The notes below the pieces were generated by a model. The model searched no databases. It worked only from the letters and a program-made list of their open reading frames with translations, and was not told where the DNA came from. Position numbers and translations under genes: made by a program. This document shows positions 725 to 60,135 of a DNA stretch of 64,000 nucleotides, in pieces. Source of the stretch: Procambarus clarkii (taxonomy: Eukaryota; Arthropoda; Malacostraca; Decapoda; Cambaridae). Every line of letters begins with the position of its first letter. Within the stretch, counting starts at the first letter, position 1. The stretch covers positions 26,842,023 through 26,906,022 of the forward strand of contig NC_091219.1 of NCBI RefSeq assembly GCF_040958095.1, written 5' to 3'.

Positions 725-3251
725 AAATGCACAATGAAAAGGTGGGAGGGAGAGGCAGAGGGAACGGGTGCAGGAGAAGTGACAGAATGCATTACTATTA
801 TAAATTTACATTCCAGCCTAACTTCCTAACCTTTATTGTAGAGGACACGAGGCTGCTCCACCAATGGTTGGCTGCAGTGGTCACCATATAGGTGTGCTAT
901 TATCTGTTATAGTTATAATCTTCATGGTTTTCTGATCAAGTGCCACCAGTAACCATTGATCCATTTTCTTTTTTTTAAATAATTTTTTTCCAGCAATTGA
1001 AGACAACTAAGGAGCATGTGATAAATGTTTAAGGCAAAGATTCAAATTATTTTAAATAAATGAAAAACTTAAGAAACACATGCTGTGTACAGTTTATTTG
1101 TGAATGGTGTTAACATTGAGGTGAAGCTATATATTTCATAAAAGTTTGAGATTTCTGCTAATTTTTCAAAATTGACAAATAATAAGTGTATACAGCTTTA
1201 CCTAGAGATTTACACAAAATGATTCAATGTGATTCATAAAAAAAAATAGTTTACCCATAATTAAATAGGGTTGATCTACTAATTATAACTTAATTTAGAA
1301 ACTTTCCAGAGTGGCCAGTGAAAAACTGTCATGCATTGGCAAGTGAATGATATTCATAATTCCACTTGAATGAACCGGATTTACCAGTGAAATAAAGGAG
1401 CTTCTCATAAGGGTCTTCTCTATTTGTTACCTTAAAATAACTAGTTAAAATGAAAGTTTATTCTCCTGAATTTCTGACAAATATCTTATTGAAAAGGTAT
1501 ACAAGCTAAATATTGCTATTATTTTCTTTGCAAATATAAATGTTTATATTGATAAATACCAAGCATAAGCAGCGTGCAGTATTACCATAAAATCTATATG
1601 ACTAAAAATTTAATTTAAAGTTTGTTGCTCTCAATACTTCAGAACAGATACAGTAACTCCATTCATATAAAATACAAGGAATACAGTCTTCCAAAGATAT
1701 GAACAGTAAATTGTTCTTAATCTTTCATTCCAGATGCAGGTAACCAGGCTCACAATTCAAGCAAGAATGAATAAACATGAAACTCCTCCAAAAAGATCCA
1801 GCAACGAACACTGCAAGTCAACAGGGTAAAACACTCCTAACTGCACCAAAGATTCTCTGGTTATATAACTGTTCACATATACCTACAGTTGTTGCATTAA
1901 AGAACTAGTAACGTTATATTTAAAAATTGGTTCCTATGGATACGATTTAATGTACAGTACAGTTAGTTACCCGTTTTCCAAATATACTCGACTCTCTTTT
2001 ATCTTGTAATTGCATTGAAAAACGTGAAATCACAATTTGACTCAAAAGTCAACGCTTTGTCCTTCATTCAGCCAAGGGCTTAGAGTAATCTGCCTTTCTT
2101 ACTTCGTGATAGCACTCTCTGGAATATATTATACAGCTACAATTTTATCTGAAGATAGTGTAAATAATGCTCCTCTAGGATCTAATTTCAACAGATTCAA
2201 TGTTTTAAGCTACAATTCAGTGTCTAAAAAGGAAATAAAAATTTTTGTATATATGGTATATATATATAATTAACTATTACAAGTTCTCATGCATTGAGGA
2301 ATATTAATATAGCTAACTGCCAGGCTGAAAACTTCTATAATGTCAAATTCCAAGACTTCCCAGCTCCATCTCAGTCAGGCTATTTTAGTACTTTAACTAC
2401 TCTTGTGTATATCAATCATCTGTGCAGCTAGTACACGTCCCTGTAGGGAGGTTCACCCTTAGAACCCCCTATCAGTGTCACTGCTTTGATACCTGCAGCC
2501 CAGGTATTGACAATGCAATCTCTTCTGAATACAACTACAGTATAAAAGCCAAAAGTTAAAAAAAAAATACCCCTTTGCCCTAAGCAGTATGCCATCAAGG
2601 CTGGTCAAAAATTGCACATAACTAACAGCTTGTAAATCAACATGCTATGTACACAGAGCTATGTACGTATTCCCAACGGAGAATAAAGGCGAGACATGAT
2701 ATTCGAAGTGAATACTGAAGATTACCATAAATGACTGATATTCCTTGCATACAAAATGACTGATCCAGACTGTCGCTCAACACATTAACAACATGCATCA
2801 GTTCTTAAAAACCAATTACATTAGTTAAGCTAATTTTTAATGATGTATCTAGGAGAGGTCATACAATTTCTTTCAATTCAGTAGATATAGATGCTTATAT
2901 ATTCTGAAAATTATAACTTCAATGCAACTACATACATCTCCTTTTAATAAGTTCCTAAAATTTATCTAGACAATTTTAAATAGATTAAATAATTTAACTG
3001 AAAATTATACAAAACTAAATTGCAGGATAAATAATAAAATAAAAAGGGTATATTGCAAAACATAGCTCCATTTCCAAAATGGCCTCAGCAACGAAATATG
3101 TTAATATCTTGAATATAATTTATATCATAATATTCTACAAAAAGGGGAATTAGTTCAGTTTATGTGCATTAAATAAAGGGTTGCAGGTGCACCTGTCAAT
3201 GTACACACTGTCATTACAAACAATAGTAAAGCAACACCCATGAGTGGACAA
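725..3251. other. 3' flank of NCBP1, no gene seen
   Basis: AT-rich sequence with no convincing ORF or RNA gene. It should include the NCBP1 3' UTR. One minus-strand ATTAAA (plus-strand 2943-2948) lies about 300 bp after the stop and is a possible poly(A) signal. Short AT repeats occur near 2250-2275. Confidence 0.5.
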
Positions 3252-6200: not shown

Positions 6201-9200
6201 ATGTATGCAGGGTTCATAAAAAAGAAATAACTATATCAACAGAGTGAGAGCTAATGCTGGGGAACATCTCTCAGGTACACCAAATGTGCATCACATTCAC
6301 ACCTCCAGGTGTTCTAATATTGTCATACGTGCAAATGATTTCTGTGCACGGAGGTGGCTACCACACACACGAAACATACTTTGTAAACTCCGGCAACATT
6401 TCCTTGCTGAACATCCAGTTTGCAACGGAGGCACAGGAGACTATCTGGGTGCGGAGGAACTTGTCAGTAAGCATAACCATCATCTGTTGGTGGTGGACCC
6501 AAACTTCATGCATCTCACGCAACACCAAGATTTGAGCTTCCTCATTACTTCCAACTACTGATTCAAAAACCTGTTGGCAGTGTAAGAAATCAGATTATTT
6601 TTAAATATCTCAATATCCAATTATTGCTAAACATGTTAGTAAGACTACTTATAATTACGAGCACATTTCATCTAGTTTATAACTATACTATACACTCAAA
6701 TTACAATAGTTACACGACATATTTAATAACAGTAAAAAATTATCCAAGTTCATGATGCCTGTAAAAAATTATCTAAGTTTATGATGCCTACATGTGCAAA
6801 CTTTTTTCTCACATACTACTCTTTTCATGAAGAAATGTTTAAGCTTCAATTTGATTCCCACTGGGGACTTTGCCTACTTGAAGGTTAGCCCCATGTACAA
6901 TCTAGAGACTATTCACATGCCATCCAAGTGGTCGAGAATTTGGAATGCTCCTCCCAAGTGGAAGGAGCATTCAAAACAAGTCAAAGTATGCTACATGTTG
7001 GCTTTTGTTATTGAATAAAATAGTGCTTGCCATGTGTGCGCTCTAAGAAACTGTTGTTTAAAGGACACAAAAGTATAGTGTATTCACTACCCTTTGTGTT
7101 CTGATCTATTGTTTTCCCTCCATACTATAAGAATAAAGAACAGTAGTTCAAGAGTTTATCTTTAAGTTTCCACATAACAATTAAACTGGACTACATCTTG
7201 ACATGTGCTCACAACATGGCTAACAACTACAAATTACCTTGAGAAACTTGGAAATTCCAGCAAAAGCATGAGAGAAACTTTTCGACCCAAGATGAAGTAG
7301 TGTCTGAACAAAGACTTGAATCTGAATAGGATTATATGGTGGGTCTGTCTCATCATTTTCACGAAGTGGATTTGGAAGCTCATTGAGCGTTTGTATAACC
7401 TCAGTTGAAGTTCCTTTTGCTCGAACCACAGCTTCAAGGCGATGGGCAGCATCAGCACCAGGTATATCACCTGCAAATGTAGAAAAAACTTTGTATTATG
7501 AAGTTTTAATTATTTCCATGTTTGGTATGGTATATAACAAAGCACACAGTATCATAATGAAAAAAATATTAACTAGATATTTTTTATTGCACAAGATAAA
7601 GAGATATCACCTGGCTTTCATATACTGGACCTGGATATGAACAGAGTAGTGCAATGATCACAGGGTACAGCAGTGGAATAATAATAACGAGATCAGGAGT
7701 ATTAAATACATGGCTAATGTAATGAGCACAGGCTAATGGATGAGCAGAAGCTGCTCACAGACTTTGTGAGCAGCTTTTGTGAGCAGTCAAGCTGAGCAAA
7801 ATGAATTGGAAAGCAAGACCAAAATGGTCTTGCTTTCCAATTCATTTTGGTCAGCTTGACTTGCTTCAGATGCTGCTCTAAGCCATAGTCATGCACCAGT
7901 TCAGGTTCCTTCACTTTTTTTCTGAGGTTCTGGCATTTCAGTCCCTGGTCTCAGGGGTTTCTGGGATCCCTGCCAGAAACCCAGAAAATCATGCCAGTCC
8001 CTGGCATTTCCCTTTCCATGCCAGGTTTAGCTTCCTTCTCTCATTCTGCTCAGGGTCTGTGGTCCTGTTTCTGGTCTGATACCTTTGGGGGGTGGAATGT
8101 GGTGCCCCACTGAGTACTCAGGTCATCTTATACCATATATATCAGGAGGCAGCCTTCAAAGGCTCCTTTAGGATGGATGGAGAGGGAGCTGTTCTGACTT
8201 TCCTGCTTGCCCCCATAGGAGTCATGAATGTTGATTCCTGTGAATGGTGTTCTTACTGGCTCTTTTTCCAAAATGATTTGTCCATCCCAAAGAAATCTAG
8301 GGACCATACCAACCACATTTCACTGATAATGTAGAGGGGAGGGGAAGGGGTAATCATTCTAGGGCCCAACTCTCACACTCAATAAGGCTGACACCAACTA
8401 GCTTATGACTGTTCTCCATCCAAGGCCATTCATTGTGCAAAGTTGGGTGAAGCTAGCTCCATGTGTTTGGCCTCTGACCCTCATACAACCATACATAAAC
8501 ATAATATATAGACAATGATCCATACAAAAATGAATTAAACAAGAGCTAATTATACTGTCATACATTCATGTAAGGCAAAAATATGATTACTCACTAGCAT
8601 CAGCATTTGCATATTTGTATATTGGTTCTGGTTTGTGTGGTACAAAACAGTCAAACTGTTCAGGGACAACTTCTGCAATTCTCTGGCGATATGATAACCT
8701 GAAAACATTTCCAAGTATTAATTTTAGGTGCTAACTGAACACATTACAAAAATTACTTACTCTTATGTATAGAAAATTGAATACTAATAGCAATGCATGC
8801 AGTGCTACAAGGCAAGTAATACAGCAATATTTCAAGATTACATGGCTAAAATATATATAAATTATGGAATTCCTAGCCAAAATTAAATGAAAATCCAACT
8901 AGTACAAGAACCAAATGACGTAAAACAAGGGCTTGTGGCCAGCAGCAGAAGTGTGGAGTGAAAAGCTTATTAAACCTTAAACTGAACTACAGTATCACCA
9001 TGTGCGGACCACAACTGTCATGGTGGTAACCGTTATGTAAAGATTGGAGTTGTCAAACCAGTGTTTACATGCAAAGAGTACCCATATGGTTCAATTAGCT
9101 CTCTATAGAAGTCATTGCAATACCCAGGAGCCAAATTGGGCACCTTTAATAAAGTAGGCTCCTTTAAACAATGACTGCCTGAAATAAGACTGTTAACCTG

Positions 9201-12200
9201 GATTGATTCACACTATACATGGTTGACCACAGTGGCAACTCTCCAACCGCACACTTTTATGCACAGAAAGATGGACACGAGATAAAATCGCTAACAAAAA
9301 TTCCCCTAGAACAAAAGGAATGCAGACAAAGATTACTAAATTATAAAGTTTTTTAACGAGACATGCTGGAAAGCTAAAAATAGTTATAGAAAGGTAAGGA
9401 TAAAGTGCAGTTAATAGTAATGCACAAAACGAGCTAGAAATTAATGCAAATTACATGAATTAGCATAAGAAACTGTTAAAAGATGACACACTAGCAACAA
9501 AATGCCAAATATGTACCCAAGTTGCTGAACAGTCTTATAAAGATAATGATCAATGACCAGGCAAACAGTCTGAGGAATGCAAAGAATTAACTGTGTGGAA
9601 AAAGAGAAGTGTGCATAGAGCTGAAGAGAATTTAAGAATTATCCAAAATATAATCAGAAGACATACCATATGTGGAAACATTACCATCTGGTTACCCATA
9701 AAAACTGTGGCAGGAACATGTTAGGCCTTGCCAGGAAAAGGTTAATTCAACCTAAAAGTAGACAAGGGCTATATAACTTGTGTAGAGTTGCAGCACCAAG
9801 ACTGACTCACCTCATGGCTCTCTGGAGCACCTCGATGATGAACTTGGCTCTCGGATGCATGCCGTCCAGCTGTGATGCCTCCAGCCATTCATCCCATGAC
9901 CACTTAAACTGAAAGTTACTCAAGTGGTACGAAAACCAATTTACAAACCTAGGGAGAAAAAGTTATTAAATGCTTACTATAAATAGATAAATCAACTATA
10001 ATTAGTTAATATCCACTATTGTTCCTACTGTGATCATGATGTCACATATTTATGTTTCAAAACAAAAGTTAGGAAAGTGCAGCCTCAAAACAGTTATAAA
10101 ATTAATTCAACTTTATACAGGTTGTACATTATACAACGGTACGGGGGAACACGAGAAAATGTTTGCATGGACGTGTTTGTACACCAAATGTTCATAAAAC
10201 AAAGACTGCCTGTACTAGTATACACCTTATCTAAATCCCAAAAAAGTTGTAAGAAATCCAACCTGTCAAAACAGCATACGTTCATTGTGTCAATGCGGTC
10301 AAAAAGGAGTTCTACAGCTTGGGCCAGCACCTGCGGTGAACATAACAACATTAATAAGTAGGTGATGGGTCACAATAACATGGCTGGAAGATATGATACC
10401 GAACCTCACATCAGAAAATTAAGAAAGTGCAGATTTGAAACCCGTCCCTCAAATATTTTTCAAGTTAAAATTATGTACTATATGTTTCCCTCCTCTGTGC
10501 ACTCCACACACAGTCCTGTCCCTTCAGTCCTACCAAGCTCTGTGCACTCCACACACACAATCTTGTCTATTCAGTCCTACTTTTTGACAGAGGAGAGCTC
10601 CTTGCTAATCTCTTATCAACCATTTGTTGAGTCTTGTTTTTCACCCATCTCATACCTCCTATTTGATGCATCATTATTTACTTAGTTGTTCTTAGCTCTA
10701 CATAAGTTATATACAGTACATAACATCTCTTCAAATCTCTCCCCATCAGCACCTCAGTGCTCCCACAAGCTACCAACACCACCTGGTCTATTATTTTACA
10801 TAACAGAAATACTGAGCCCAAATAGTTCCTTACCTGAGGCATGGTGGCAGGTTGCAGTTTACAGAGCTCAATCAGGAGTGAGCCGTAGCAGATTTCAATG
10901 TAACGAGGCCCAGGCAGGTGGAAGAGCTCAGCCAGCACTACTTCAACAATCATGTACTCTAGAGGAATCTTGTGCTTCAGAGGAAAGTCCAGCAAAAAGG
11001 CAGCACTTCACACAAGACAGAATATGCACATATTATTTAATTGCCTTGACACCTAACAATAACATTTCTGCATATGAAGCTCCAATATATGCTTGCGTGT
11101 TTTCTCCCGAGCTGCCATTAAATTTGGCAGCTTAGCTGCCAAATTTAATGGCATTATACCATTTAATGGCATTATAATGGCATTATACCATGATTAAATT
11201 TAATCATTATACCAGCAAATGATTCTACTGTATATATAAATACATTACATACTGTAAGTTACATACATAACATATGTTACATATATATTGCAGTAACATA
11301 CAAGCACAAACCATCTCTCAATGAAGTGGACCTAAATTTATTTCTGTGCATGGTAAGACATTTTTCTAAATATCCTTAAGCCCAATGTAGGTGTTCACCA
11401 AGCAGTAAATAGACACCAAAGCTAGACATCCATTCCATTTTATCCTAGGGAAGGTCCGTTGTTGGCTTAGGTCATATGGGGATCTTGGCAAGTTGACCAA
11501 ATAGTGACATAATAGCTGGCTTTTTAAGTGGACTACAAGAAGCTACAAGAAGTGGGCTACTTGTAGCCCACTCTGGCAACCTTACAAACACTACCACACT
11601 CCAGCACCAACTGCATCAGAAGACCAGGTGTATATTCAATCCTAGCTAACAATCTGCTCCAATCCATTCTTGCCCTTTAACGTGTCCATGGTTATTCACA
11701 CTCGTTCACCGCTGTTTCACACTCGTGCACCACATTCCCTGTGTCACTGACCAGTAAAAGGTGAATAGCTCTCCCATTTCATTCAGTTTGTTCATCACTC
11801 ATAACAACCAATGTTTTTTTCTCCAAGAGATACTCCTGATAAGATTATTTACTCATACCAACCATTGTTTCCTTTCCAGGTGGTACTCTTTGATGATGTT
11901 GTGCAAGTGCTCCTCAATCAAGTAACGCTCAATGGAGTGGGCACCAGGCAAGACAGGACCTTCAGGACAGTCGGTGTAATCAAACAACCTGCAAGATAAT
12001 TTCAGATGTAACATTAAGATATTGTCTGTTTATCTATGCAAAATAACATATTGTCCATAAACACACCACACCACATAACACACACTATTCTTATCACACT
12101 CGGGCAGATTAGCGACCATAGTACTGTATACTATTTTTTGATCTACTGGGTAGTGCAATTGATATAGCATCTACTTCTCATGTTGGAGGTCTGGTGTTCG

Positions 12201-43794: not shown

Positions 43795-44075
43795 CGCAGA
43801 GGTTTGGTAGCTGAGTGGACAGCGCGCGGGACTCGTAATCCTGTGGCCCAGGTTCGATTTCCGGAGCCGTTATAGGGAAATGGGCAGTTTCTTTCACTGA
43901 TGCCCCTGTCACCCAGCAATAAATAGTTACCTGGGAGTTACACAGCGGTTACGGGCTGCTTCCTGGGAGTGGGGGTGTGAGAAAAAAATAGTAACAGTTG
44001 ATTGATTGACAGTCGAGAGGGGGGCCGAAAGAGCAGAGCTCAACCTCTGCAAGCACAACTAGGTGAACACAGAAG
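43795..44075 (+). repeat. tRNA-derived SINE, family C, with LINE-type tail
   Basis: Head GTTTGGTAGCTGAGTGGACA and B-box CCAGGTTCGATTTCC; body TTTCTTTCACTGATGCCCCT, ACCCAGCAATAAATAGTTAC and ACGGGCTGCTTCCTGGGAGT; tail GGGGCCGAAAGAGCAGAGCT and GCAAGCACAACTAGGTGAAC. The body resembles family D (56088-56345). Confidence 0.85.
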
Positions 44076-50118: not shown

Positions 50119-50716
<598 letters not shown>

Positions 50717-50795: not shown

Positions 50796-50844
50796 GAAAT
50801 AAAGGAATAAGTGACAACAACCTGGATGAAAACAAACAACCTAT

Positions 50845-50940
50845 CCCACACATGAAAGTAAGTCATCACGCCTGACAAGAGGTCCAGGATGGTCCGAAAC
50901 GTTGTCACTTTCAGGTCATGTGTGGCCGGGTTATTGTGTT
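50845..50940 (+). repeat. Repeat with hammerhead-like core, copy 1
   Basis: CTGACAAGA (50872-50880), GGTCC-AGGAT-GGTCC (50881-50895), GAAAC (50896-50900) and GTTGTC follow in hammerhead order. Outer sequences CCACACATG/AAAGT (50846-50859) and ACTTT/CATGTGTGG (50907-50925) are complementary and would form a long stem I-like helix. Confidence 0.5.
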
Positions 50941-50974
50941 AAGACACGAAGACTTATCTCTCTCTCTTTGTTGT

Positions 50975-51290
50975 TTTAGATTCAGCTACTTGGAATTCCA
51001 AGTAGCACGGGCTATGGTGAGCCCGTAGTGGACTTACCTGGCACAGGAGCGGGGCTCCGGTTCTAACCGGTTCAGTGTTATCGATGTGGGTAAGTGAGAT
51101 GACGGAGCTCTGCACTAGGAGATTGCTTGATGATGATTAAGCCACCCAAGAGGTGGCACGGGCATGAATAGCCCGTAATGCTGTAGGATGTTTGTGGTTT
51201 CAGATTTAGCTACTCAGAACGAAGTGTCCATGTAGCACGGGCTATGGTGAGCCCGTAAAACCCCACTTGCAGTAGGAGTGGGTCTGGTCC
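50975..51290 (-). repeat. Family G and family F short elements, minus strand cluster
   Basis: Two family G copies (about 50975-51065 and 51195-51290) carry inverted GGGCTCACCATAGCCCGTGC, and a partial family F copy (51128-51178) carries AAGCCACCCAAGAGGTGGC and ACGGGCATGAATAGCCCGTA. Confidence 0.7.
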
Positions 51291-51626
51291 TATATAAAAC
51301 TGGTGGCCACGTGACCATATAGTTCTTCCGGGGGCCGCCGCTAGCCCCGGGGCGCGCAGTCGTGACGTCAATCCCCACTTTTCCTCGATCCAGTAATTGG
51401 CTCTCAAAGTTGTTTCCTCATTTTACATGGTTTTGGTGTCGGCCTCGGTGGTGGGAACAGTTTCCTCACACCTGATGCCTCTGTTCCCCTACAACACTCC
51501 CTAACCTGGGCGTTATAGGGAGTGCTGTAGGCAAGTTGTATCTTGGGGAAGGTCAACCGTTGACCTAGAGACGTCTCTAAGCCTAACAAGCTTGATCTTC
51601 GACAATGGAAAATCCTCTAACTCTTG

Positions 51627-51808
51627 CCCAACCACTTGGGCTGGACGGTAGAGCGACGGTCTCGCTTCATGCTGGTCGGCGTTCAGTCCCCGACCGTCCA
51701 AGTGTTTGGGCACCATTCCTCCCGCCCCCCCCCCCCGTCCCTTCCCAAATCCTTATCCTGACCCCTTAAAAGTGCTATATAGCCATAATGGCTTGGCGCT
51801 TTCACCAT
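51627..51808 (+). repeat. tRNA-derived SINE, family E, plus strand
   Basis: CCACTTGGGCTGGACGGTAG, GTCTCGCTTCATGCTGGTCG, GGCACCATTCCTCCCGCCC, a C-run, CCCAAATCCTTATCCTGACC and TATATAGCCATAATGGCTTG. The best-preserved copy here. Confidence 0.9.
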
Positions 51809-51809
51809 C

Positions 51810-51915
51810 AAGCTACTGCCCCGCTCCTGTGCCAGGTAAGTCTCCAACGGGCTCACCATAGTCCGTGCTACTTGGAACATTTTGCGAATCTTAATCACCA
51901 AGAACAACAACGGTG
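51810..51915 (+). repeat. Family G short element
   Basis: CCCCGCTCCTGTGCCAGGTA, CGGGCTCACCATAGTCCGTG and CTACTTGGAACATTTTG, immediately after the family E SINE. A core fragment also lies at 52478-52505. Confidence 0.75.
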
Positions 51916-52003
51916 CTTTCCCTTGATAATTTCTTTCTTCGCTCATTGTCAACACAAGTCCAAGTAACTTTACTAAGACAATACATCCCACAAGGAGAGT
52001 GAC

Positions 52004-52165
52004 ACGAGAGACATCTCCCGTCACGCAGGGTGCAGTCGCACCTCCACAGATCTCCAGTATCAGCTCTTGATACTGGTAATGGCTCAAATGAGCCACCACT
52101 TACGGGCTATTCATGCCCGTGCCACCTTTTGGGTGGCTTAATCTCCATCAATCAATCATCAAGGA
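52004..52165 (+). repeat. Family F hairpin-rich element, longer copy
   Basis: Starts ACGAGAGACATCTCCCGTCA, then CGCAGGGTGCAGTCGCACC, GATCTCCAGTATCAGCTC, TACGGGCTATTCATGCCCGT and CCACCTTTTGGGTGGCTTAA, and ends in an ATCAATCAATCATCAA tail. Confidence 0.8.
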
Positions 52166-52311
52166 AAGTGATTTAGGGTATGTCTACCCTCCCCATGACA
52201 GGTCCTTCAAGGGGCCAATTACATTAATTCAATTACATTACACAATTACATTAATTCAATTACATTACACAATTACATTAATTCATCAGTTAACATATAG
52301 TGCACACACAC

Positions 52312-52315
<4 letters not shown>

Positions 52316-52384
<69 letters not shown>
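52316..52384. repeat. (AT)n microsatellite
   Basis: About 69 bp of AT. Confidence 0.97.
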
Positions 52385-52387
<3 letters not shown>

Positions 52388-52524
52388 CAATAATACATGT
52401 CTAGAAGAACACAATACACCACATGGGAGAGGAAATCCTCCTGGAATCGGACAGAGAAGAAGACCTTGGGGATAGTTTCACGGGCTCACCATAGCCCGTG
52501 CTACACGGACTTACACTCTCCTCT

Positions 52525-52650
52525 AATCCTGGCTCCTTAATAACTTTCCCATCCCTTTCCTTCACCCGGGCTCTAAGAGCCTCGAACCCCGGACCCCACG
52601 CGTGTGACGCCGAAGCCCTATCGACAGAGCTATTGAGTGGTCTTAATAAG
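52525..52650 (-). repeat. tRNA-derived SINE, minus strand
   Basis: On the minus strand: ATAGCTCTGTCGATAGGGCT (A-box region) and GGGGTTCGAGGCTC (B-box). A related diverged copy lies at 54090-54210. Confidence 0.65.
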
Positions 52651-52754
52651 GAAAGATTTTTATTTTCCAGAGAGACCAAACCCTGCCTGGCGCACGTTGT
52701 GTGGGACGGAGGAGACGCTAAGTATACCACGCCTTGAGGCACGCTTCTGGACCC

Positions 52755-53030
52755 CTTTGTCATGGACGGGGAGGAGGGGGGGGGGGGAGAGGGAGTGGTG
52801 GGGGGGGAGTGGTGGGGGGGGGGGAGTGGTGAGGGGAGAGGGAGTGGTGTGGGGGGGGAGAGGGAGAAGGATGGAGGAACGGTGGATAGGAGCTGGACAA
52901 GATGGGAGCGGATGAGAGGTGAGTAAATTACAGTATAATGATGGAGAGAGAGTGGAGGAGAGTGAGGGAGAGTGGAGAGAGTGAGGGATCCTTCTAACCA
53001 CTGAGGGAGAGGGGGAGAAAGGAAGGGAAC
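52755..53030. repeat. G/GA-rich low-complexity tract
   Basis: Runs of G and GGAGTGGTG units, then GAGAGTGAGGG units. The long minus-strand open frame over it is a composition effect. Confidence 0.85.
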
Positions 53031-53035
53031 TATCA

Positions 53036-53187
53036 GGGGAAAGTGCCAGACCATTACGACTATATAGCAGTGGGAAGGATTTGGGATGGAATGGTAAGGA
53101 ATGGTGCCCAACCACTTGAGACGGTCGGGGATTGAACGCTGACCTGCATAAAGCGAGACCGTCGCTCTACCGTCCAGCCCAAGTGGA
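53036..53187 (-). repeat. tRNA-derived SINE, family E, minus strand
   Basis: Inverted family E words: GTGCCAGACCATTACGACTA, TGGTGCCCAACCACTTGAGA, GCGAGACCGTCGCTCTACCG and TCCAGCCCAAGTGG. Confidence 0.88.
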
Positions 53188-53189
53188 GA

Positions 53190-54085
53190 GGGAGGAGAGT
53201 GGCGAGTAGTTAGTATGTCCCGCAGTACAGCATTATTCATTCATTCATTTCTATACATGTCCTGACAATTACCATCAATAACGACTGTCACAATGAACTT
53301 GGAGTAATTAGTATAGCCAATGAGTTACATGTAACACATACCAGAATGTAACCATTGTGACACATATTGGGAGACACATACGACTCATTATGTTTCATTT
53401 ATAATAGATGATCTACAATATGTAGCCAATATATCAGGTAAGACAGCCAGAGACACAAGCACAACTATAAACATGAAGTGTTTATAGAAACATTAAACAT
53501 TTCTATCATATAACACCGTCTTCGGGAACTACTAGGGTGGATCACACTCACTGAATTGAAATTGAAATAGAAATAAGTTTATTGAGGTATAAATACACAC
53601 AAAGGGATGAGGCAGCTCAAGCTATTCTCACCCCCGTCCAGTACAACGTGTTCATACATATATAGCCACACATCACAAACAATACACATATTACCGAACA
53701 TTCCGAGTGATAAACATATACATTCATTCCTTTATACTTGTTACCAGACGTACACAACTCACTATACACACCCATACATATCTTGTAGTCACATTCCAGT
53801 AACCATTTTCAAACCTTTCTTAACACGTGACGTTCCACAGCACACCTGGCCCCACGTGACCTTGGTGAGCCCAGCAATAGGCACGACTCTACATCAGCAG
53901 GTCCCAGAATAGGTCAATAATAGCCGCGTCACTCACCGCACTCCACCACACACACATTTTTTGCTCGGCCGAGAGATGGAAGCTATTTCCAGTCTCCTTC
54001 TGGAGGATATACTCTCTCTCTCTCTCTCTCTGCTTCTGCCGGCAGCTATTTCTTGTTTCTTCTCGATAACATTCCGCTTCCCGGC
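53190..54085. other. Stretch without a gene; one dispersed repeat end
   Basis: At 53548-53850 a sequence beginning AATAAGTTTATTGAGGTATA and AGCTCAAGCTATTCTCACCC looks like an inverted retroposon 3' end with its poly(A)-type signal. I see nothing else supportable here apart from a short (CT)n at 54013-54031. Confidence 0.45.
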
Positions 54086-54089
54086 ACGT

Positions 54090-54210
54090 GTATCACCACA
54101 TGCAGAGCATCTCCTTCAGTTCCACTCACCTAGGCTGTATATGGGTCTCGAACCCTGGACCCCCACGAATGTGACGACGAAGTTCCTTCAACCCGCTACC
54201 GTCTGTGAGC
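54090..54210 (-). repeat. tRNA-derived SINE, minus strand, diverged
   Basis: On the minus strand AGACGGTAGCGGGTTGAAGG and the B-box CCAGGGTTCGAGACCC. Confidence 0.6.
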
Positions 54211-54385
54211 TTGGAGGGGATGGAGGGTCTTCGTAGTGTTAAATGATATTAGAGAGAAGTAAAGCATCTGGATTGATAAACTCTAGCCAGGGATAGTTAA
54301 GAAAGTTAAACCCGTAATTGTACATCTCCCGACGGAAATTTCTGACGTCAATCAAGGCGGAAATTTCTTGGAATTTCTGAGCGTG

Positions 54386-55070
54386 GTGGCAGGTGTGTGT
54401 GGTGGGAGGTGTGTGGGGTGTGTGTGTGTGTGGCGGGAGGTGTGTGTGTGGTGGGAGGTGTGTGTGGTGGGAGGTGTGTGGGGTGTGTGTGTGTGTGTGG
54501 TGGGAGGTGTGTGTGGTGTGAGGTGTGTGTGTGGTGGGAGGTGTGTGGGGTGTGTGTGTATGTGGTGGGAGGTGTGAGGGGTGTGAGGTGTGTGTGTGGT
54601 GGGAGGTGTGTGTGGTGTGAGGTGTGTGTGTGGTGGGAGGTGTGTGTGTGGTGGGAGGTGTGTGGGGTGTGTGTGTATGTGGTGGGAGGTGTGTGTGTGT
54701 ATGTGGTGGGAGGTGTGTGTGTGTATGTGGTGGGAGGTGTGTGTGTGTGTGGTGGCAGGCGTGTGTGTGATGGGAGGTGTGTGTGTGGTGGGAGGTGTGT
54801 GTGTGTGTGTGTGTGGTGGGAGGTGTGTGTGTGGGGTGTGGCAGATGTGTGTGTGGTGGGAGGTGTGTGTGTGTGTGTGGTGGGAGGTGTGTGTGTGTGT
54901 GGTGGCAGGTGTGTGTGTGGTGGGAGGTGTGTGTGTGGTGGGAGGTGTGTGTGTGTGTGTGTGGTGGGAGGTGTGTGTGTGTGTGTGGTGGGAGGTGTGT
55001 GTGTGTGTGTGTGTGTGTGTGGTGGGAGGTATGTGTGTAGTGGCAGGCGTGTATGGTGGCAGGTGTGTGG
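54386..55070. repeat. GT-rich minisatellite, GTGTGTGTGGTGGGAGGT units
   Basis: Around 685 bp of (GT)n blocks of varying length, each followed by GGTGGGAGGT. Open frames in up to five phases (peptides such as CVCVVGGVC or HTHTPPTTH) are by-products. Confidence 0.97.
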
Positions 55071-55311
55071 GGTGGGAGTGACGCACAGAGCCACAACAAT
55101 GAGGCCCGCCACGCCTGACTGGTTACCCCGGCTATTGTACACCATTATCTGTGATCCTCTGACGTTAATCCGGTGTAACCTGACGCGAGCCTCGCGGGTC
55201 GCGGGTCGCGACCTTGTACGTTATTGGCTCTCCCGAACACCCGCGAGCGTGATCGCGGGTGCCCAACAACCCCGTATAGGACGGCGCGGGTAGTCGAGCT
55301 ATAGATCAATA

Positions 55312-55655
55312 AACTACCGCTCACAGGATGAGTATGGGGTGCACAATAAACAACCTCTCACAGGACGAGTATGGGGTGCACAATAAACAACCGCTCACAG
55401 GATGAGTATGGGGTGCACAAACTACCGCTCACAGGACGAGTATGGAGTGCACAAACTACCGCTCACAGGACGAGTATGGGGTGCACAAACTACCGCTCAC
55501 AGGACGAGTATGGGGTGCACAAACTACCGCTCACACGACGAGTATGGGGTGCACAAACCACCGCTCACAGGAGGAGTATGGGGTGCACAAACTACCGCTC
55601 ACAGGACGAGTATGGGGTGCACAAACTACCGCTCACAGGAGGAGTATGGGGTGCA
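55312..55655. repeat. Minisatellite, 34-bp unit, about ten copies
   Basis: Unit ACCGCTCACAGGACGAGTAT GGGGTGCACAAACT, first two units longer (AATAAACA insert). The core CTCACAGGATGAGTATGGGG is related to the dispersed CCCACAGGATGGGTATGGGG motif. Confidence 0.95.
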
Positions 55656-56087
55656 CAATAAAACAGTGCCCCGGGAAGGCCCTCCTGGCCATATAAGGCG
55701 TATATAACAATCACTTTCAAAGTGAACTTTGAACGTGCCAGTGACGGTGAACCTTCCCGGGGAGCGGCAAGGCCCAAGAATACAATTGGGTTAAAAATAC
55801 AAAAATAAACACATGATGAAATTAGAAAACGGTGTGAAAGTAGTGGAGCAGGGCTCGTTCCTGGACTACGGAGACTGAAGAAATAGGACAGACAGGCAAG
55901 TTACTGACGGGGGGGAACTAGACAGTTACGTCCCCTCATCCTGAAGAACAAGGGGGGCATAACGACAGGGAAGACATTAAGAGGGAACTTGACGGTACAG
56001 TAACTTCCCCTCGTCCAGAAGAACGAGGCTTATAATCTTTGTAGATACGAATGAGTCAAAGACGCCGGTCGATGATGCCAAAGATGA

Positions 56088-56345
56088 GTCAGGGAGCCGG
56101 TCGGCCGAGCAGACAGCACGCTGGATTTGTGATCCTGTGGTCCCGGGTTCAATTCCGGGCGCCGGCGAGAAACAATAGGCAGAGTTTCTTTCACCCTATG
56201 CCCCTATTACCTAGCAGTAAAATGGGTACCTGGGTGTTAGTCAGCTGTCACGGGCTGCTTCCTGGGGGGTGGAGGCCTGGTCGAGGACCGGGCCGCGGGG
56301 ACACTAAAGCCCCGAAATCATCTCAAGATAACCTCAAGATGTCAC
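56088..56345 (+). repeat. tRNA-derived SINE, family D, full length
   Basis: Head AGCCGGTCGGCCGAGCAGAC, B-box CGGGTTCAATTCCGGGCGCC, body TTTCTTTCACCCTATGCCCC, TACCTAGCAGTAAAATGGGT and ACGGGCTGCTTCCTGGGGGG, end CCGAAATCATCTCAAGATAA plus a direct repeat of CTCAAGATAAC. Opposite copy at 61605-61875. Confidence 0.92.
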
Positions 56346-56509
56346 AATAAACTTCTTCACCGTAAGGGGTCGTAAATAGATGCATTGCGTTACAACAGGA
56401 GGTTTGTTGCTGATATTTCAACACAGATTTATATGTAAATATGTTAAGAGAAAAGAGTAAAGAAATTCATGCAGATCGGAAGGCTGGGCTTAAGAACAGC
56501 TGCTGGACC

Positions 56510-56640
56510 CTACAAGCATATTTTGATCGACTTGAGAATGGTCCAGGACGGACCGAAACGTCGTCGTCCCTTCACCTTCTAGTGTGTGGTCTGGTCAACA
56601 GACTTCAGCCACGTTATTGTGACTCCTCGCCTGCCTACAA
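56510..56640 (+). repeat. Repeat with hammerhead-like core, copy 2
   Basis: CTTGAGA (56531-56537), stem II-like GGTCC-AGGAC-GGACC (56540-56554), GAAA (56555-56558), then ACG-TCGT-CGT as a 3-bp stem III with tetraloop (56558-56567) followed by C (56568). The right end CTTCAGCCACGTTATTGTGA (56603-56622) is the inverted form of the left end of copy 3. Confidence 0.6.
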
Positions 56641-56769
56641 GCATAGCTAGGCGCTCGGCGAGTCTATTTAGGCGAGTAGATCAAGACGAGTAGATCTAGA
56701 AGAGCCCATCATTTGGCAATAACTAAGGGGAGAGTATTGAGACGAGGCCATACAGCTTAGTGGCTTGCA

Positions 56770-57032
56770 AGGGCCAGATTCACGAAAGCCCTTACGCAAG
56801 CACTTACGACCGTGTACATCTTTCCTCAATCTTTGACGGCTTTGGTTACATTTATTAAACAGTTTACAAGCATGAAATCTTCCCATTCAACTGTTGTTAT
56901 TGTCATAAACAGCCTCCTGGTGCTTCGGAGCTCATTAACTATTTAATAATAGTAAACAAAGCCGCCAAAGATTTGAGAAAAGGTGTACAGGTTCGTAAGT
57001 GTTTGCGTAAGTGCTTTCGTGAATGTGGCCCC
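56770..57032. mobile_element. MITE with ~75-bp terminal inverted repeats
   Basis: Left end GGGCCAGATTCACGAAAGCC... and right end (read inverted) GGGGCCACATTCACGAAAGC run in parallel for about 75 bp, with shared CACTTACG, GTACA and TTTGGCGGCTTTG-type words. The ~110-bp centre has no ORF. Ends of the GGGCC-GATTCACGAA type are known from non-autonomous DNA transposons in many animals. Confidence 0.85.
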
Positions 57033-57039
57033 TGGGAGG

Positions 57040-58070
57040 CGGACGTCAGCAAGCCATCAGGACACACAGCCTTACACAACACCCACCTCAACACAGCAAG
57101 TGTGTCAAGGAGGCTGCGTCAGCAACCCGCGACCTACGCAGTCCTCCTAAGCCCTGACAGACACATCATCAAGATAAACCACCCAACAAGGATAGTGCGG
57201 AAAGAAAAAAGTATACAAGCCGAACAAATGTAAAGAAAAGGAGTGCGGCAAGCAAGGTTACCCAAGGCGACGGTATGGCAACTCCCAGACTTGCCAACCT
57301 CTAACAAGGGTGTTAGAGGTCTCCGGACGTTCATTGGTTACTCCATTTTGTGTCATCGTCGTGTCAAGAAAAACATTTCTCTTGCAAAAGTTGTGCACAT
57401 ATGAGAGAACTTTCAGAACTTTGCTATATTATAAATAATTGTTAATGCAATTTGTTTAAAATATTACGGGTGGAGCATTCTCAACAGGTCTTGTTTTGAT
57501 ATGTTTATTGTGATATACATAGAGAGAGAGCACAGTGTTGGTGACCTTTGCTACACGAAAGACCATTTTCTTTACCTAATATTAACCATCTGACCAACGC
57601 GTCCTCTTAAAAATAACGTCACTTTTCGCTCGTATGCGCGCTATGGCCAAATTTGGACGTAATTTGAAATGAAATCGACTCACAAAAGTGACGTACTGTC
57701 CCGTTTTCTGTTTGAGTCGTCCGGCCCACTCGGACAGGTTAGAACAGGAAACTTTCAATTCACGTTTTTCATAACGTTTTGAAACTTTATGAGAATTTCC
57801 TGCCCACCTAACCTATCAGAGGACCCTTAACTTACTGTTGTTGATAACAAAGTGTTGAGCATGACCAGGTGAGGGACCAGGTCGTGGAGGGAAACAAGCA
57901 ACACAGATGAACCGTATAGATGTAATAAAAAAAAACTTTATTCAGCATAAGATCAGTGAGCAAGTGGAATGAGCTGAGAAAGTGGGAGGTGTCTGCAGCT
58001 AACTCTTTACATATATTATGAAGCAAGAGGGTTCCAACTACACACAAAAATCACATTAACGTGATGCATC
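57040..58070. other. Stretch without a recognisable gene
   Basis: Mixed composition. 57236-57365 is relatively GC-rich with no convincing start codon context. No supported ORF. Confidence 0.45.
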
Positions 58071-58165
58071 AAATGATCGTAGCTCAGTCGATTAAGGCAG
58101 CGTCTGGGATGCTCTTGGACGCAGGTTCGAACCTCGTCACGGCCCTTGTGGATTTGTTCAGGGTT
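58040..58165 (+). repeat. tRNA-derived SINE, family A, plus strand
   Basis: ATCGTAGCTCAGTCGATTAA, GGCAGCGTCTGGGATGCTC, B-box GCAGGTTCGAACCTCGTCAC, and GGCCCTTGTGGATTTGTTCA. The ~35 bp before it (CACATTAACGTGATGCATCA) are the inverted 3' body of the same family. Confidence 0.85.
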
Positions 58166-58457
58166 CCAACTCATTGTCCGGCGACTGAAGAGCATCGCTC
58201 ACCCTGCACGCACATAAAGAGTGCATGTACGTACAGAGAAAAGTGACAGTAATAACAGAATAACATTAAACAATAAAGGTAAATACACAGTGACACGAGT
58301 GTGTGCCAACTGTGACGGATGCTGACCCCAGGAGAGGCGGTCGTCTCGCCACCAACATGGCGCCTCTACACTGCCATCTCTGCTCTTTTGTTTCGCATCA
58401 AGATGAATATGAAACCTCTGACTGCACAGTTTTTATATAGGGTTAACTTGGGATGTT

Positions 58458-58610
58458 CTTAGAGCCGTAGCGCAGTGGTCAGCGTAGTCGGCTCACAACC
58501 GAAAGGTCCCGGGCTGGATTTCTGCGGCAGAACAGAGACGTTTGTGCACTTTTCCTTTCACCTGACGTTTCTTTTCGCCTAGTAGTTACGAACAGATAAG
58601 CACTGATAGG
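58458..58610 (+). repeat. tRNA-derived SINE
   Basis: AGAGCCGTAGCGCAGTGGTC (A-box region), B-box-like GGTCCCGGGCTGGATTTCT, then TTCCTTTCACCTGACGTTTC and CGCCTAGTAGTTACGAACAG. Confidence 0.75.
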
Positions 58611-58958
58611 TAAACATTAAAGGGTTTGTTGACTTAATTTTGTGTGTACACGGGCGGGTCCCCGCCGTCGCTGGGGGGTCTGGATGACCTGCAGTAGTAC
58701 CCCCTCCACGCCACGCGCGGCGCTTGACTACACTACCCGCCCCTGGCCACTGCACTCATCACAAACTATCACCATGAGATATCATTATCGTGAGCACCCT
58801 TAACTCTCAGCTCCCAGCTTGTACGCAAACTGCCAGCTGAGAGTTAAGAGTAGGAATAACATGCCATAGGAGTAACAAGGACCAGTAGTCCTTGTTACCG
58901 GAGAGGCGCTCAGAGAACACTACAAAGTCGAGTACTGAGCTCTGTGCAGCGCAACACA

Positions 58959-58961
<3 letters not shown>

Positions 58962-59051
<90 letters not shown>
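58962..59051. repeat. (GT)n microsatellite
   Basis: About 90 bp of GT. Confidence 0.97.
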
Positions 59052-59052
<1 letters not shown>

Positions 59053-59054
59053 TG

Positions 59055-59695
59055 GTAGCCTGATCATAGCAAGCTTTCCCATTACCATATTTAAGGACCT
59101 CAACATGCCGTCACAAGACAATTGGCTTGAGTTAAGACTTGAAATATTCACGGAAAAATCAAGAGCTCTCTACTTAGCAAGATCTGACCTGTATACAACT
59201 TATCATCCATAATACAGAACTGAGACAGGTAGCAGATAACAAATATCCCGCAGTCAGATTTGACAAGAAGAGAATTGCCTTAACAAAACAAATACGATAC
59301 ACGATTGGAAGAACAGTCAGCATGATTAACATAACGGCAGTTTTGTCCGGACAGAAGTTAAGCGACGAACACAACATGTTCAGAACCTCTACCCCCCCCC
59401 CTCACAGTCGTGTCCAACCTAAAATATATATATCACTCAAAAATGGCTCAAAGGCCTTGAAACAGTACACAACAAGCCACGAAGAGCACTACCAGAACCC
59501 CTAAAGTGACATTACCGTAAAAAATCCCCATAAAATGGGGATTACATGGTATGAAACAGATCTTAAACCACTTGAAAAAGAAGAATAATCTACAGCCAAA
59601 CAACAGACGACATCTTTACAAGTGAAACACAGGACAGGTTCCAAAAGAGAGTCGCAGGTGTTGGTCCTCGTCAGAAAACCACCGGGAGATATTCA
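59055..59695 (+). other. Unclassified, possibly transposon-derived region
   Basis: Plus-strand pieces look protein-like (for example a frame around 59080-59210 and one at 59322-59504), but stops interrupt them and I recognise no family. Probably an old mobile element; left unnamed. Confidence 0.3.
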
Positions 59696-59700
59696 CGCGG

Positions 59701-59780
59701 CACGGTAGATGGCTAGTAATTTTACCAGTACGTGCAGGGGCACGGTAGATGGCTAGTAATATTACCAGTACGTGCAGGCG
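59701..59780. repeat. 40-bp tandem duplication
   Basis: CACGGTAGATGGCTAGTAAT plus 20 more bases at 59701-59740 are repeated at 59741-59780 with two differences. It directly precedes the hammerhead-like repeat copy 3. Confidence 0.95.
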
Positions 59781-59885
59781 ATGAGTCACAATAACGTGGC
59801 TGAAGTAACGACTTGTGAATGGTCCAGGACGGACCGAAACGTCGTCGTCCCTTCATCTTCTGGTGTGTGGTCTGGTCAACATAAC
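59781..59885 (+). repeat. Repeat with hammerhead-like core, copy 3
   Basis: Left end GTCACAATAACGTGGCTGAA; CTTGTGA (59812-59818); GGTCC-AGGAC-GGACC (59821-59835); GAAAC; GTCGTCGTC; then GTGTGTGGTCTGGTCAACAT, as in copy 2. Confidence 0.65.
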
Positions 59886-60135
59886 CCATACGTGTGATGA
59901 AGCCAATATTAAGAGTGGTGACCTTGGTCAGCAGTAACAAGGTGACCAGGGCCGGAGAGTATACTGGTGACCAATTATATGTACATGAAGTACATATAAT
60001 TATATACTGAAGCTCAAGTCAGGGACAATACTTCATAAAGACCATTATGTGGCAGTGTAGAGGCTGCGGTCCTCAGGCGCTACACCTCACTGAATCAAGA
60101 TTTATTACATATACAATCCAGTACAGATTCCCTCA

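What the first reader, a model, noticed from the sequence alone, without database searches (positions are those of the whole stretch)
50845..59885. Hammerhead-ribozyme-like core in a dispersed repeat (three copies, plus a diverged one in NCBP1)
At 56531-56568 and 59812-59849 the order CU---GA, GGTCC/GGACC stem II, GAAA, ACG-TCGT-CGT stem III, then C is that of a type I hammerhead with a tiny stem III, the form known from Penelope-like retroelements. The copy at 50872 keeps CUGA better and has long complementary outer arms (stem I-like), though its stem II is imperfect. None has a fully intact CUGANGA box here. Established: hammerheads occur in Penelope-like elements. Inferred: that this family is one of them; its inverted ends could also fit a DNA element.
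Basis: partly seen in the sequence, partly recalled or inferred. Interest (0 to 1): 0.75.

Follow-up and report, generated by a model that had tools for sequence, protein, structure and literature searches.

The report
Penelope retroelement fragments with hammerhead-like ribozyme
The repeat is a short, very common fragment of Penelope-type jumping genes that carries a small RNA-cutting motif of the hammerhead kind in a slightly altered form; this kind of element is already known, but the fragments show unusually clearly how such elements insert.

Summary
The core is exact at 56540 and 59821 and has 3 mismatches at 50881; a worn fragment lies in an NCBP1 intron.

The 27-base core occurs 41,652 times in the 4.03-Gb genome. 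In three longer copies it lies 260-275 nt behind an RT/GIY-YIG reading frame, so the family is a Penelope-like element (PLE), not a DNA transposon. Inserts have target duplications of varying length, head-to-head inverted pairs, and usually a tail on one arm only.

Five PLE families here carry the same motif behind GIY-YIG frames. Stems I and II differ between families yet still pair. The box is UUGANAA, not CUGANGA: core pair C3-G8 is replaced by U3-A8, a known natural hammerhead variant (PMC3088659). Palindromic ACGU or AGUACU in stem III suggests cleavage as dimers.

Against: no Rfam hammerhead hit; shuffles fold as well; single changes at 3/8 inside the family do not favour the pair; activity untested.

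New inference: 5' ends cluster within about 10 nt of the ribozyme start, so most copies look like copies of the PLE mRNA leader.

Verdict: a new member of a known kind.

The parts
56526..56634 (+). W-family PLE insert, single unit: 5' end at ATCGAC, hammerhead-like motif, tail, 3' end CGCCTGC
56528..56566 (+). hammerhead-like motif: stem I 56528-56531/56563-56566 (CGAC/GTCG), box TTGAGAA 56532-56538, extra T 56539, stem II 56540-56544/56550-56554, GAAA 56555-56558, U16.1 56561, C17 56562; predicted cleavage after 56562
   Evidence: sequence; fold of 56524-56570 gives stems I and II
56509..56520 (.). left copy of 12-bp target site duplication CCTACAAGCATA
56634..56645 (.). right copy of the target site duplication CCTACAAGCATA (shares its first base with the insert end)
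59774..59807 (-). left inverted arm of the second insert, reduced to the 34-nt tail
   Evidence: inverted repeat I2 with 56602-56634
59808..59881 (+). right arm of the second insert: motif with box TTGTGAA (A6 changed), ends at the short end GGTCAACA
59764..59774 (.). probable target site duplication (ACCAGTACGTG), 9 of 11 identical to 59884-59894
   Evidence: read by eye; letters confirmed
50846..50925 (+). older, decayed relative: outer arms 50846-50859 and 50907-50925, box CTGACAA 50872-50878, imperfect stem II 50881-50885/50891-50895
   Evidence: with 50800-51000 as query the genome gave 5 further matches, not all of them over the core
10358..10464 (-). heavily decayed W-like unit (tail best kept) in an NCBP1 intron
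   Evidence: neighbouring exon CBP80 E 0.003

Best explanation
The repeats are short inserts of a Penelope-like retroelement (family W). Behind its RT/GIY-YIG frame, in what should be its pseudo-LTR, the PLE carries a minimal type I hammerhead-like motif, followed by a leader that ends just ahead of the next unit's start codon. RNA layout: 5'-(ACA)AU-CGAC-UUGAGAA-U-GGUCC(AGGAC)GGACC-GAA-ACGU-C|GUCG...-GGUCAAC-34-nt tail-CGCCUGC-AU-AUG(ORF). SHOWN: linkage to the PLE frame, target duplications, head-to-head pairs with a tail mostly on one arm only, tightly clustered 5' ends, and stem exchange between families. INFERRED: (1) tandem PLE transcripts are cut after C17, probably as dimers through the self-complementary ACGU (AGUACU in family A), perhaps helped by the PLE protein; U3-A8 replaces the C3-G8 core pair. 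(2) The PLE protein cuts both target strands and primes reverse transcription inside the RNA at two sites, CGCCUGC at one DNA end and GGUCAAC at the other. (3) When the template is the 5' end of a PLE mRNA, synthesis runs off at the transcription start just before stem I, leaving a promoterless leader copy of about 110 bp. The window copies are such dead copies or relatives; none is expected to do anything for the host.
For: PLE: L105 has a 797-aa frame with RVT_1 (E 7e-8) and GIY-YIG (E 0.0012; 0.00017 for its C-terminal piece), motif 275 nt behind the frame; L107 and L109 have shorter frames with both domains. In L105 the frame is preceded by TTTTGTGACTCATCGCCTGC-AT-ATG, the same bases as the 3' end of the tailed inserts. 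Motif: 15 of 30 GIY-YIG loci carry it in sense downstream, none in the reversed control, 0.05 per shuffled set; families B and C lie behind GIY-YIG-like frames of their own, read by eye. Stem I: own arms give the highest sum in 120 (five families) and 5040 (seven rows) permutations, reached only by the identity, with the best legal register allowed to every pairing. Position 3-8 is C-G in family A and U-A in B, C, D and W. RNAfold finds stems I and II unaided in W, C, D, A. Insertion: target duplications of 8 or more in 18 of 27 pairs and 6 of 24 singles, against 14 of 5201 and 0 of 4605 permuted; one tailed and one short arm in 20 of 21 simple pairs of the best-match set, 18 of 19 with three duplicate loci counted once. 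5' ends in a zone of about 10 nt: 66 of 71 units (best-match set) and 18 of 26 (first 20 loci of contig 1). Literature: two RT start sites bounding the tail, cutting and extension of both strands, ORF start at stem II (PMC11167929); tail on one inverted pLTR, head-to-head (PMC3846280); U3-A8 natural and active (PMC3088659).
Against: No Rfam hammerhead model matches any motif tested, even at E 10. The family consensus is not CUGANGA, and one unpaired base (U, or A/C in family D) sits between A9 and stem II. Fold energies do not differ from shuffles (z -0.6 to +0.1; only L116 stands out at -2.85, and its lowest-energy fold pairs core bases); for family B the lowest-energy fold is not the hammerhead. 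Inside family W single changes at positions 3 and 8 do not protect the pair: C-A 461 copies, U-G 161. The predicted cut does not define insert ends: they start about 30-40 nt upstream of it, so the templates were uncut. Each stem I alone is weak (chance 0.01 to 0.22). GIY-YIG scores in W are just under Pfam's cut-off. The transcription start is only inferred, from a TATTTA 38-40 nt before the box in 4 of 4 full W copies; the 2 Wt copies looked at lack it. No W copy with pLTRs on both sides was fetched.
Confidence: 0.72

Rival explanations
1. The PLE part is right, but the motif is no longer a ribozyme: it is kept as a protein-binding or RT-initiation hairpin (stem I plus stem II) of PLE RNA.
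For: No Rfam hit; U3-A8 plus an inserted base; stem III of 1-2 bp in W, C, D and A; PLE insertion in vitro does not need cleavage (PMC11167929).
Against: Family B has a full stem III (ACGCG/CGCGU) and a legal GUC site; unpaired positions U4, G5, A6, A9, G12, A13, A14 and pair A15.1-U16.1 recur in all families while paired bases are exchanged between them (in part demanded by the search descriptor), which a plain hairpin does not require.
Confidence: 0.25
2. A non-autonomous DNA transposon: the inverted arms are terminal inverted repeats.
For: Head-to-head inverted pairs are common.
Against: The two outer ends differ (tail versus no tail), target duplications vary from 8 to 17 nt, many inserts are single units, and longer copies carry RT and GIY-YIG.
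Confidence: 0.02
3. A retrozyme: small circular RNAs with a canonical type I hammerhead, copied by a PLE.
For: Tandem arrays of core units exist at L012 (32-bp unit, 11.6 copies) and L031 (68 bp, 4 copies).
Against: The copies examined are mostly single or inverted, about 110 bp rather than 170-400, with a non-canonical core and few distinct 3' ends; the source is itself a PLE with its own frame.
Confidence: 0.05
4. Clustered 5' ends reflect an RT block or strand-switch site at the motif, not the mRNA start.
For: Junctions in inverted pairs are scrambled and use pieces of the CGAC/GTCG stem; PMC3846280 explains head-to-head junctions by self-priming.
Against: A structural block should stop RT on entering stem I from the 3' side, not after leaving it; single inserts with target duplications show the same 5' end.
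Confidence: 0.35

Closest known systems
Penelope-like elements with minimal type I hammerheads in pLTRs (Cervera and de la Pena 2014, Lunse et al. 2017: neither is held; known here through passages of PMC6155905, PMC7761336 and the reference list of PMC10085705)
   Same: Motif in the pLTR region of an RT+GIY-YIG element, tiny stem III, thousands of dispersed copies, likely dimeric cleavage
   Different: Here four of five families carry U3-A8 instead of C3-G8, plus one unpaired base before stem II; whether those two papers already list such cores could not be checked
Poseidon of Anolis carolinensis, PAc (PMC11167929, main text section read)
   Same: Start codon at the start of stem II, cut site 26 bp downstream of it (25 here), two internal RT start sites bounding the tail, both strands cut and extended
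   Different: In W the AUG at stem II opens only a short frame and the long frame starts about 100 nt further down; RT seems to start just before the long frame instead of 111-118 nt inside it; PAc showed no difference in start site between strands in vitro, while W inserts do differ between ends
Adineta vaga Penelope elements (PMC3846280, passages read)
   Same: Head-to-head inverted pLTRs, 31-bp tail on one of them, TSDs of 8-10 bp
   Different: W inserts are mostly leader-only and number tens of thousands
U3-A8 hammerhead variants (Perreault et al. 2011, PMC3088659, section 8 read)
   Same: C3-G8 covaries to U3-A8 in natural hammerheads; active in vitro
   Different: Those were 'several' examples; here the exchange characterises several PLE families of one genome

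Membership tests
Penelope-like element | Reverse transcriptase domain | tested here: met
   L105 RVT_1 E 7.2e-8, 32.8 bits over cut-off 29.6; L107 and L109 26 bits, below cut-off, frames truncated
Penelope-like element | GIY-YIG endonuclease behind the RT | tested here: inconclusive
   PF01541 at the right place in three W copies (E 0.001-0.002; C-terminal piece of L105 22.2 bits against cut-off 22.6); in the genome at large 150 of 150 scored of 4843 candidates are over the cut-off
Penelope-like element | pLTR sequence on both sides of the frame (tandem or partial tandem) | tested here: inconclusive
   The last 20 nt of the 3' end also precede the L105 start codon; no complete two-pLTR copy was fetched
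Penelope-like element | Head-to-head inverted pairs, one-sided tail, TSDs of varying length | tested here: met
Type I hammerhead ribozyme | CUGANGA box | tested here: not met
   W: UUGANAA in 44,131 copies, CUGANGA in 15; met in family A
Type I hammerhead ribozyme | Watson-Crick pair between positions 3 and 8 | tested here: met
   C-G in A, U-A in B, C, D, W; but not protected within W
Type I hammerhead ribozyme | Stem II then GAAA, A15.1-U16.1, H17 | tested here: met
   A15.1-U16.1 in 48 of 50 distinct rows, H17 in 48 of 50; the finder demanded GAAA, a stem II and, for B/F, a CGTCA site, so part of this is by construction; one extra unpaired base before stem II
Type I hammerhead ribozyme | Stem I with compensatory change | tested here: met
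Type I hammerhead ribozyme | Matches a curated covariance model | tested here: not met
   (W and B motifs; A, C, D not scanned)
Type I hammerhead ribozyme | Self-cleavage | not testable with these tools
   needs transcripts
Metazoan retrozyme | Tandem units of about 170-400 nt with a canonical type I hammerhead | tested here: not met
   mostly single or inverted units of about 110 bp, box not CUGANGA; definition from passages of PMC7229834
TIR DNA transposon | Identical inverted ends and TSD of fixed length | tested here: not met

The most novel reading that the evidence does not exclude
Tens of thousands of dispersed hammerhead motifs in this genome are run-off copies of PLE mRNA leaders. Reverse transcription starts inside the RNA at two sites, one for each DNA end, just ahead of the frame, and ends at the mRNA start, which lies at the first stem of a ribozyme whose core has switched from C3-G8 to U3-A8. 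This would explain why many minimal hammerheads of animal genomes are solo and dispersed, and it makes the priming rule (tail at one DNA end, none at the other) readable from inserts.
Probability: 0.4. Interest if true: 0.55.

Novelty: new member of a known kind. Interest (0 to 1): 0.38.

Why it matters
The activity and role of hammerheads in Penelope-like elements are called 'still a mystery' in PMC7761336 (passage). This genome offers at least five PLE families with exchanged stems, a natural comparison of C3-G8 and U3-A8 cores, and tens of thousands of inserts whose ends record where reverse transcription started at each DNA end and where the template ended. That makes the PLE insertion mechanism testable from sequence. 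It also shows that searches demanding CUGANGA would miss the W, B, C and D motifs; Rfam's hammerhead models missed the W and B motifs scanned here.

Tried and rejected
Rfam scans of the whole window at E 10 and of slices or short loci with W, B and CUGANGA-type motifs gave other families (mostly miRNA-type hairpins) and no hammerhead; the L105 slice gave nothing at all. Rejected: a DNA transposon with TIRs (ends differ, TSD length varies); a retrozyme (unit too short, mostly not tandem, core not canonical); chance (shuffles and reversed controls near zero). A MAFFT alignment of 12 motifs misaligned families A and B, so I counted pairs in scripts with explicit registers and did not use the count of structure pairs or build a covariance model. 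The first stem I test used a register fixed per family; one search repeats it with the best legal register for every pairing. Rows W_L114m and W_L116 come from inverted junctions that are scrambled, so the five-family test (1 of 120) is the cleaner one. No structure prediction was made. Paper searches used; 'hammerhead ribozyme' with 'crayfish' gave no paper. I make no wider claim that something is unpublished, because Cervera 2014 and Lunse 2017 are not held.
Full report
WHAT IS THERE. The window belongs to a 4.03-Gb genome in 2308 contigs. From its size, its many large contigs and TTAGG-type repeats I take it for a decapod such as a crayfish; that is recall and was not tested. A worn fourth unit lies at about 10358-10464 on the minus strand beside an exon matching CBP80 (E 0.003). 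The 27-base core occurs 41,652 times exactly in the genome (20,890 + 20,762; reversed-pattern control 0).

WHAT ELEMENT IT IS. The 40 best-matching loci, plus 20 loci taken in map order from the first places on contig 1, show a unit of about 110 bp that begins near AATCGACTTGAGAAT and, where tailed, ends GTGACTCNTCGCCTGC. Seven of 26 distinct units of the contig 1 set match a shared upstream 3' UTR further than the rest. Fetching 4.3-6.0 kb for five of these loci gave frames. L105 has an unbroken 797-aa frame with RVT_1 (E 7e-8) and GIY-YIG (E 0.0012, 19.5 bits, below Pfam's 22.6; 22.2 bits for the C-terminal piece); L107 and L109 have shorter frames with both domains, below cut-off; L106 keeps only a C-terminal piece, and L108 shows the UTR beside simple repeats without a clear frame. 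The motif starts 275 nt (L105, L107) or 261 nt (L109) behind the frame. The L105 frame is itself preceded by TTTTGTGACTCATCGCCTGC-AT-ATG, the same bases that end the tailed inserts. The source is therefore a Penelope-like element.

HOW IT INSERTS. Target duplications of 8 or more bases (8-17) next to both ends were found in 18 of 27 inverted-pair inserts and 6 of 24 single inserts, against 14 of 5201 and 0 of 4605 permuted flank pairs. The single-insert figure is a lower bound: filler bases and longer PLE copies were scored as misses. All 27 simple two-unit pairs with both ends scored (21 in the best-match set, 6 in the contig 1 set) are head-to-head; the one opposite arrangement, L039, looks like one insert inside an older copy. 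In the best-match set 20 of 21 simple pairs have one arm with the 34-nt tail and one ending at GGTCAAC, and one pair (L016) has two tails; three of the loci are duplicates of one insert, which leaves 18 of 19. The query contained the tail, so one tailed arm is expected by selection, but the other arm was not selected. In the contig 1 set there are three tailed/short pairs, three short/short (which look like copies of one insert whose second arm ends inside the tail), one pair with a lost end and one three-unit cluster. PMC11167929 (main text section read) reports two RT start sites that bound the tail, and cutting and extension of both strands, but no difference in start site between strands in vitro. 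PMC3846280 (passages) reports a 31-bp tail on one of the inverted pLTRs.

WHERE INSERTS BEGIN. 5' homology starts within about 10 nt just before stem I in 66 of 71 units (best-match set; 5 lack the core context) and 18 of 26 units (contig 1 set; 7 run on into the UTR, 1 lacks the context). The best-match set is biased towards copies like the window copy; exact matching can misplace an end by a base or two. A TATTTA lies 38-40 nt before the box in 4 of 4 full W copies, about 30 nt before the clustered ends. I infer that most inserts are run-off copies of the PLE mRNA leader. They start about 30-40 nt before the predicted cut, so they do not come from cleaved RNA; PMC11167929 likewise found cleavage unnecessary for insertion.

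THE MOTIF. A search with the GIY-YIG profile gave 4843 candidates, 150 scored, all over the cut-off. In 15 of the 30 loci fetched a box + hairpin + GAAA motif lies in sense downstream of GIY-YIG; there are 2 upstream and 10 antisense (several belonging to neighbouring PLEs in the other direction), 0 in reversed sequences and 0.05 per shuffled set. Families: A (CUGAAGA, GUAU/AUAC), B (UUGAAAA, GUAAU/AUUAC), C (UUGAGAA, GAACC/GGUUC), D (UUGACAA, GGCC/GGCC), F (a relative of B, without a linked frame), W (UUGAGAA, GGUCC/GGACC). B and C lie behind GIY-YIG-like frames, read by eye. Stem I: A CCUU/AAGG, B AGUCU/AGACU, C CAC/GUG, D GGUG/CAUC, W CGAC/GUCG; each family's own arm pairs best, with only the identity reaching the observed sum in 120 permutations, and likewise in 5040 with two further W rows. 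Single stems are not significant alone (chance 0.01 to 0.22). Stem III: B has ACGCG/CGCGU; W, C and D have ACGU and A has AGUACU, which are self-complementary and suit a dimer.

THE BOX. Genome counts with the W stem II: UUGANAA 44,131, CUGANAA 461, UUGANGA 161, CUGANGA 15. The double change is more frequent than independence gives (about 1.7), probably because a small older subfamily is C-G; but C-A exceeds U-G, so decay inside W does not protect the pair. A pattern for other stem II sequences gave 17,130 matches (control 7), and 98 of the first 100 listed are U3-A8, 2 are C-A. PMC3088659 (section 8 read) states that C3-G8 covaries to U3-A8 in several hammerheads and that such ribozymes are active in vitro. 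All families have one unpaired base between A9 and stem II; in A, B, C, F and W it makes an AUG, and PAc is described as having its start codon at the start of stem II, with the cut 26 bp further on (after nucleotide 25 here).

AGAINST. Rfam finds no hammerhead in the window or in the slices and loci of W, B and CUGANGA-type copies; families A, C and D were not scanned. Fold energies equal those of shuffles except L116, whose best fold also pairs core bases, and the lowest-energy fold of B is not the hammerhead. I therefore file the element as a PLE and say that the motif works like a minimal hammerhead, without filing W as a canonical hammerhead.

THE WINDOW COPIES. 56526-56634 is a single unit with a 12-bp target duplication and an unbroken U3-A8 core. 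59774-59881 is an inverted insert whose left arm is only the tail and whose right arm ends short; its box has position 6 changed. 50846-50925 is an older relative, too decayed to judge. None is expected to be active alone. Coordinates were checked letter by letter.

Noticed in passing
L012 1093-1463: Tandem array of the older core: 32-bp unit ACTTGATAATGGTCCAGGACCGAAACGTCGTC, 11.6 copies, 95% matches: a hammerhead-like satellite in the making.
   Followed up: partly
L031 1402-1672: Four identical 68-bp tandem units of the W core inside an inverted insert, suggesting template jumping during insertion.
   Followed up: partly
window 7785-7861: Near-perfect hairpin of about 35-bp arms with a short loop; scores E 8.5e-5 with a miRNA model but far below its gathering score; perhaps a small palindromic transposon.
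   Followed up: no
window 50426-50527: (AACCT)n telomere-like blocks beside AT repeats; a similar composite repeat is seen in the sense strand of L060 at about 2500-2640 and 2940-3060.
   Followed up: no
window 43801-43869, 58464-58528, also about 56100-56170: tRNA-like stretches (Rfam tRNA 24.7 and 23.4 bits, below cut-off; the third read by eye), probably tRNA-derived SINEs.
   Followed up: no
window 59699-59778: Two head-to-tail 40-bp copies (98% alike) that end at the left end of the second PLE insert, overlapping it by a few bases.
   Followed up: no
G000 C94 10.71-10.75 Mb: Three inverted inserts with the same flanks about 20 kb apart (L018, L019, L020, the middle one inverted): a segmental duplication.
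   Followed up: no
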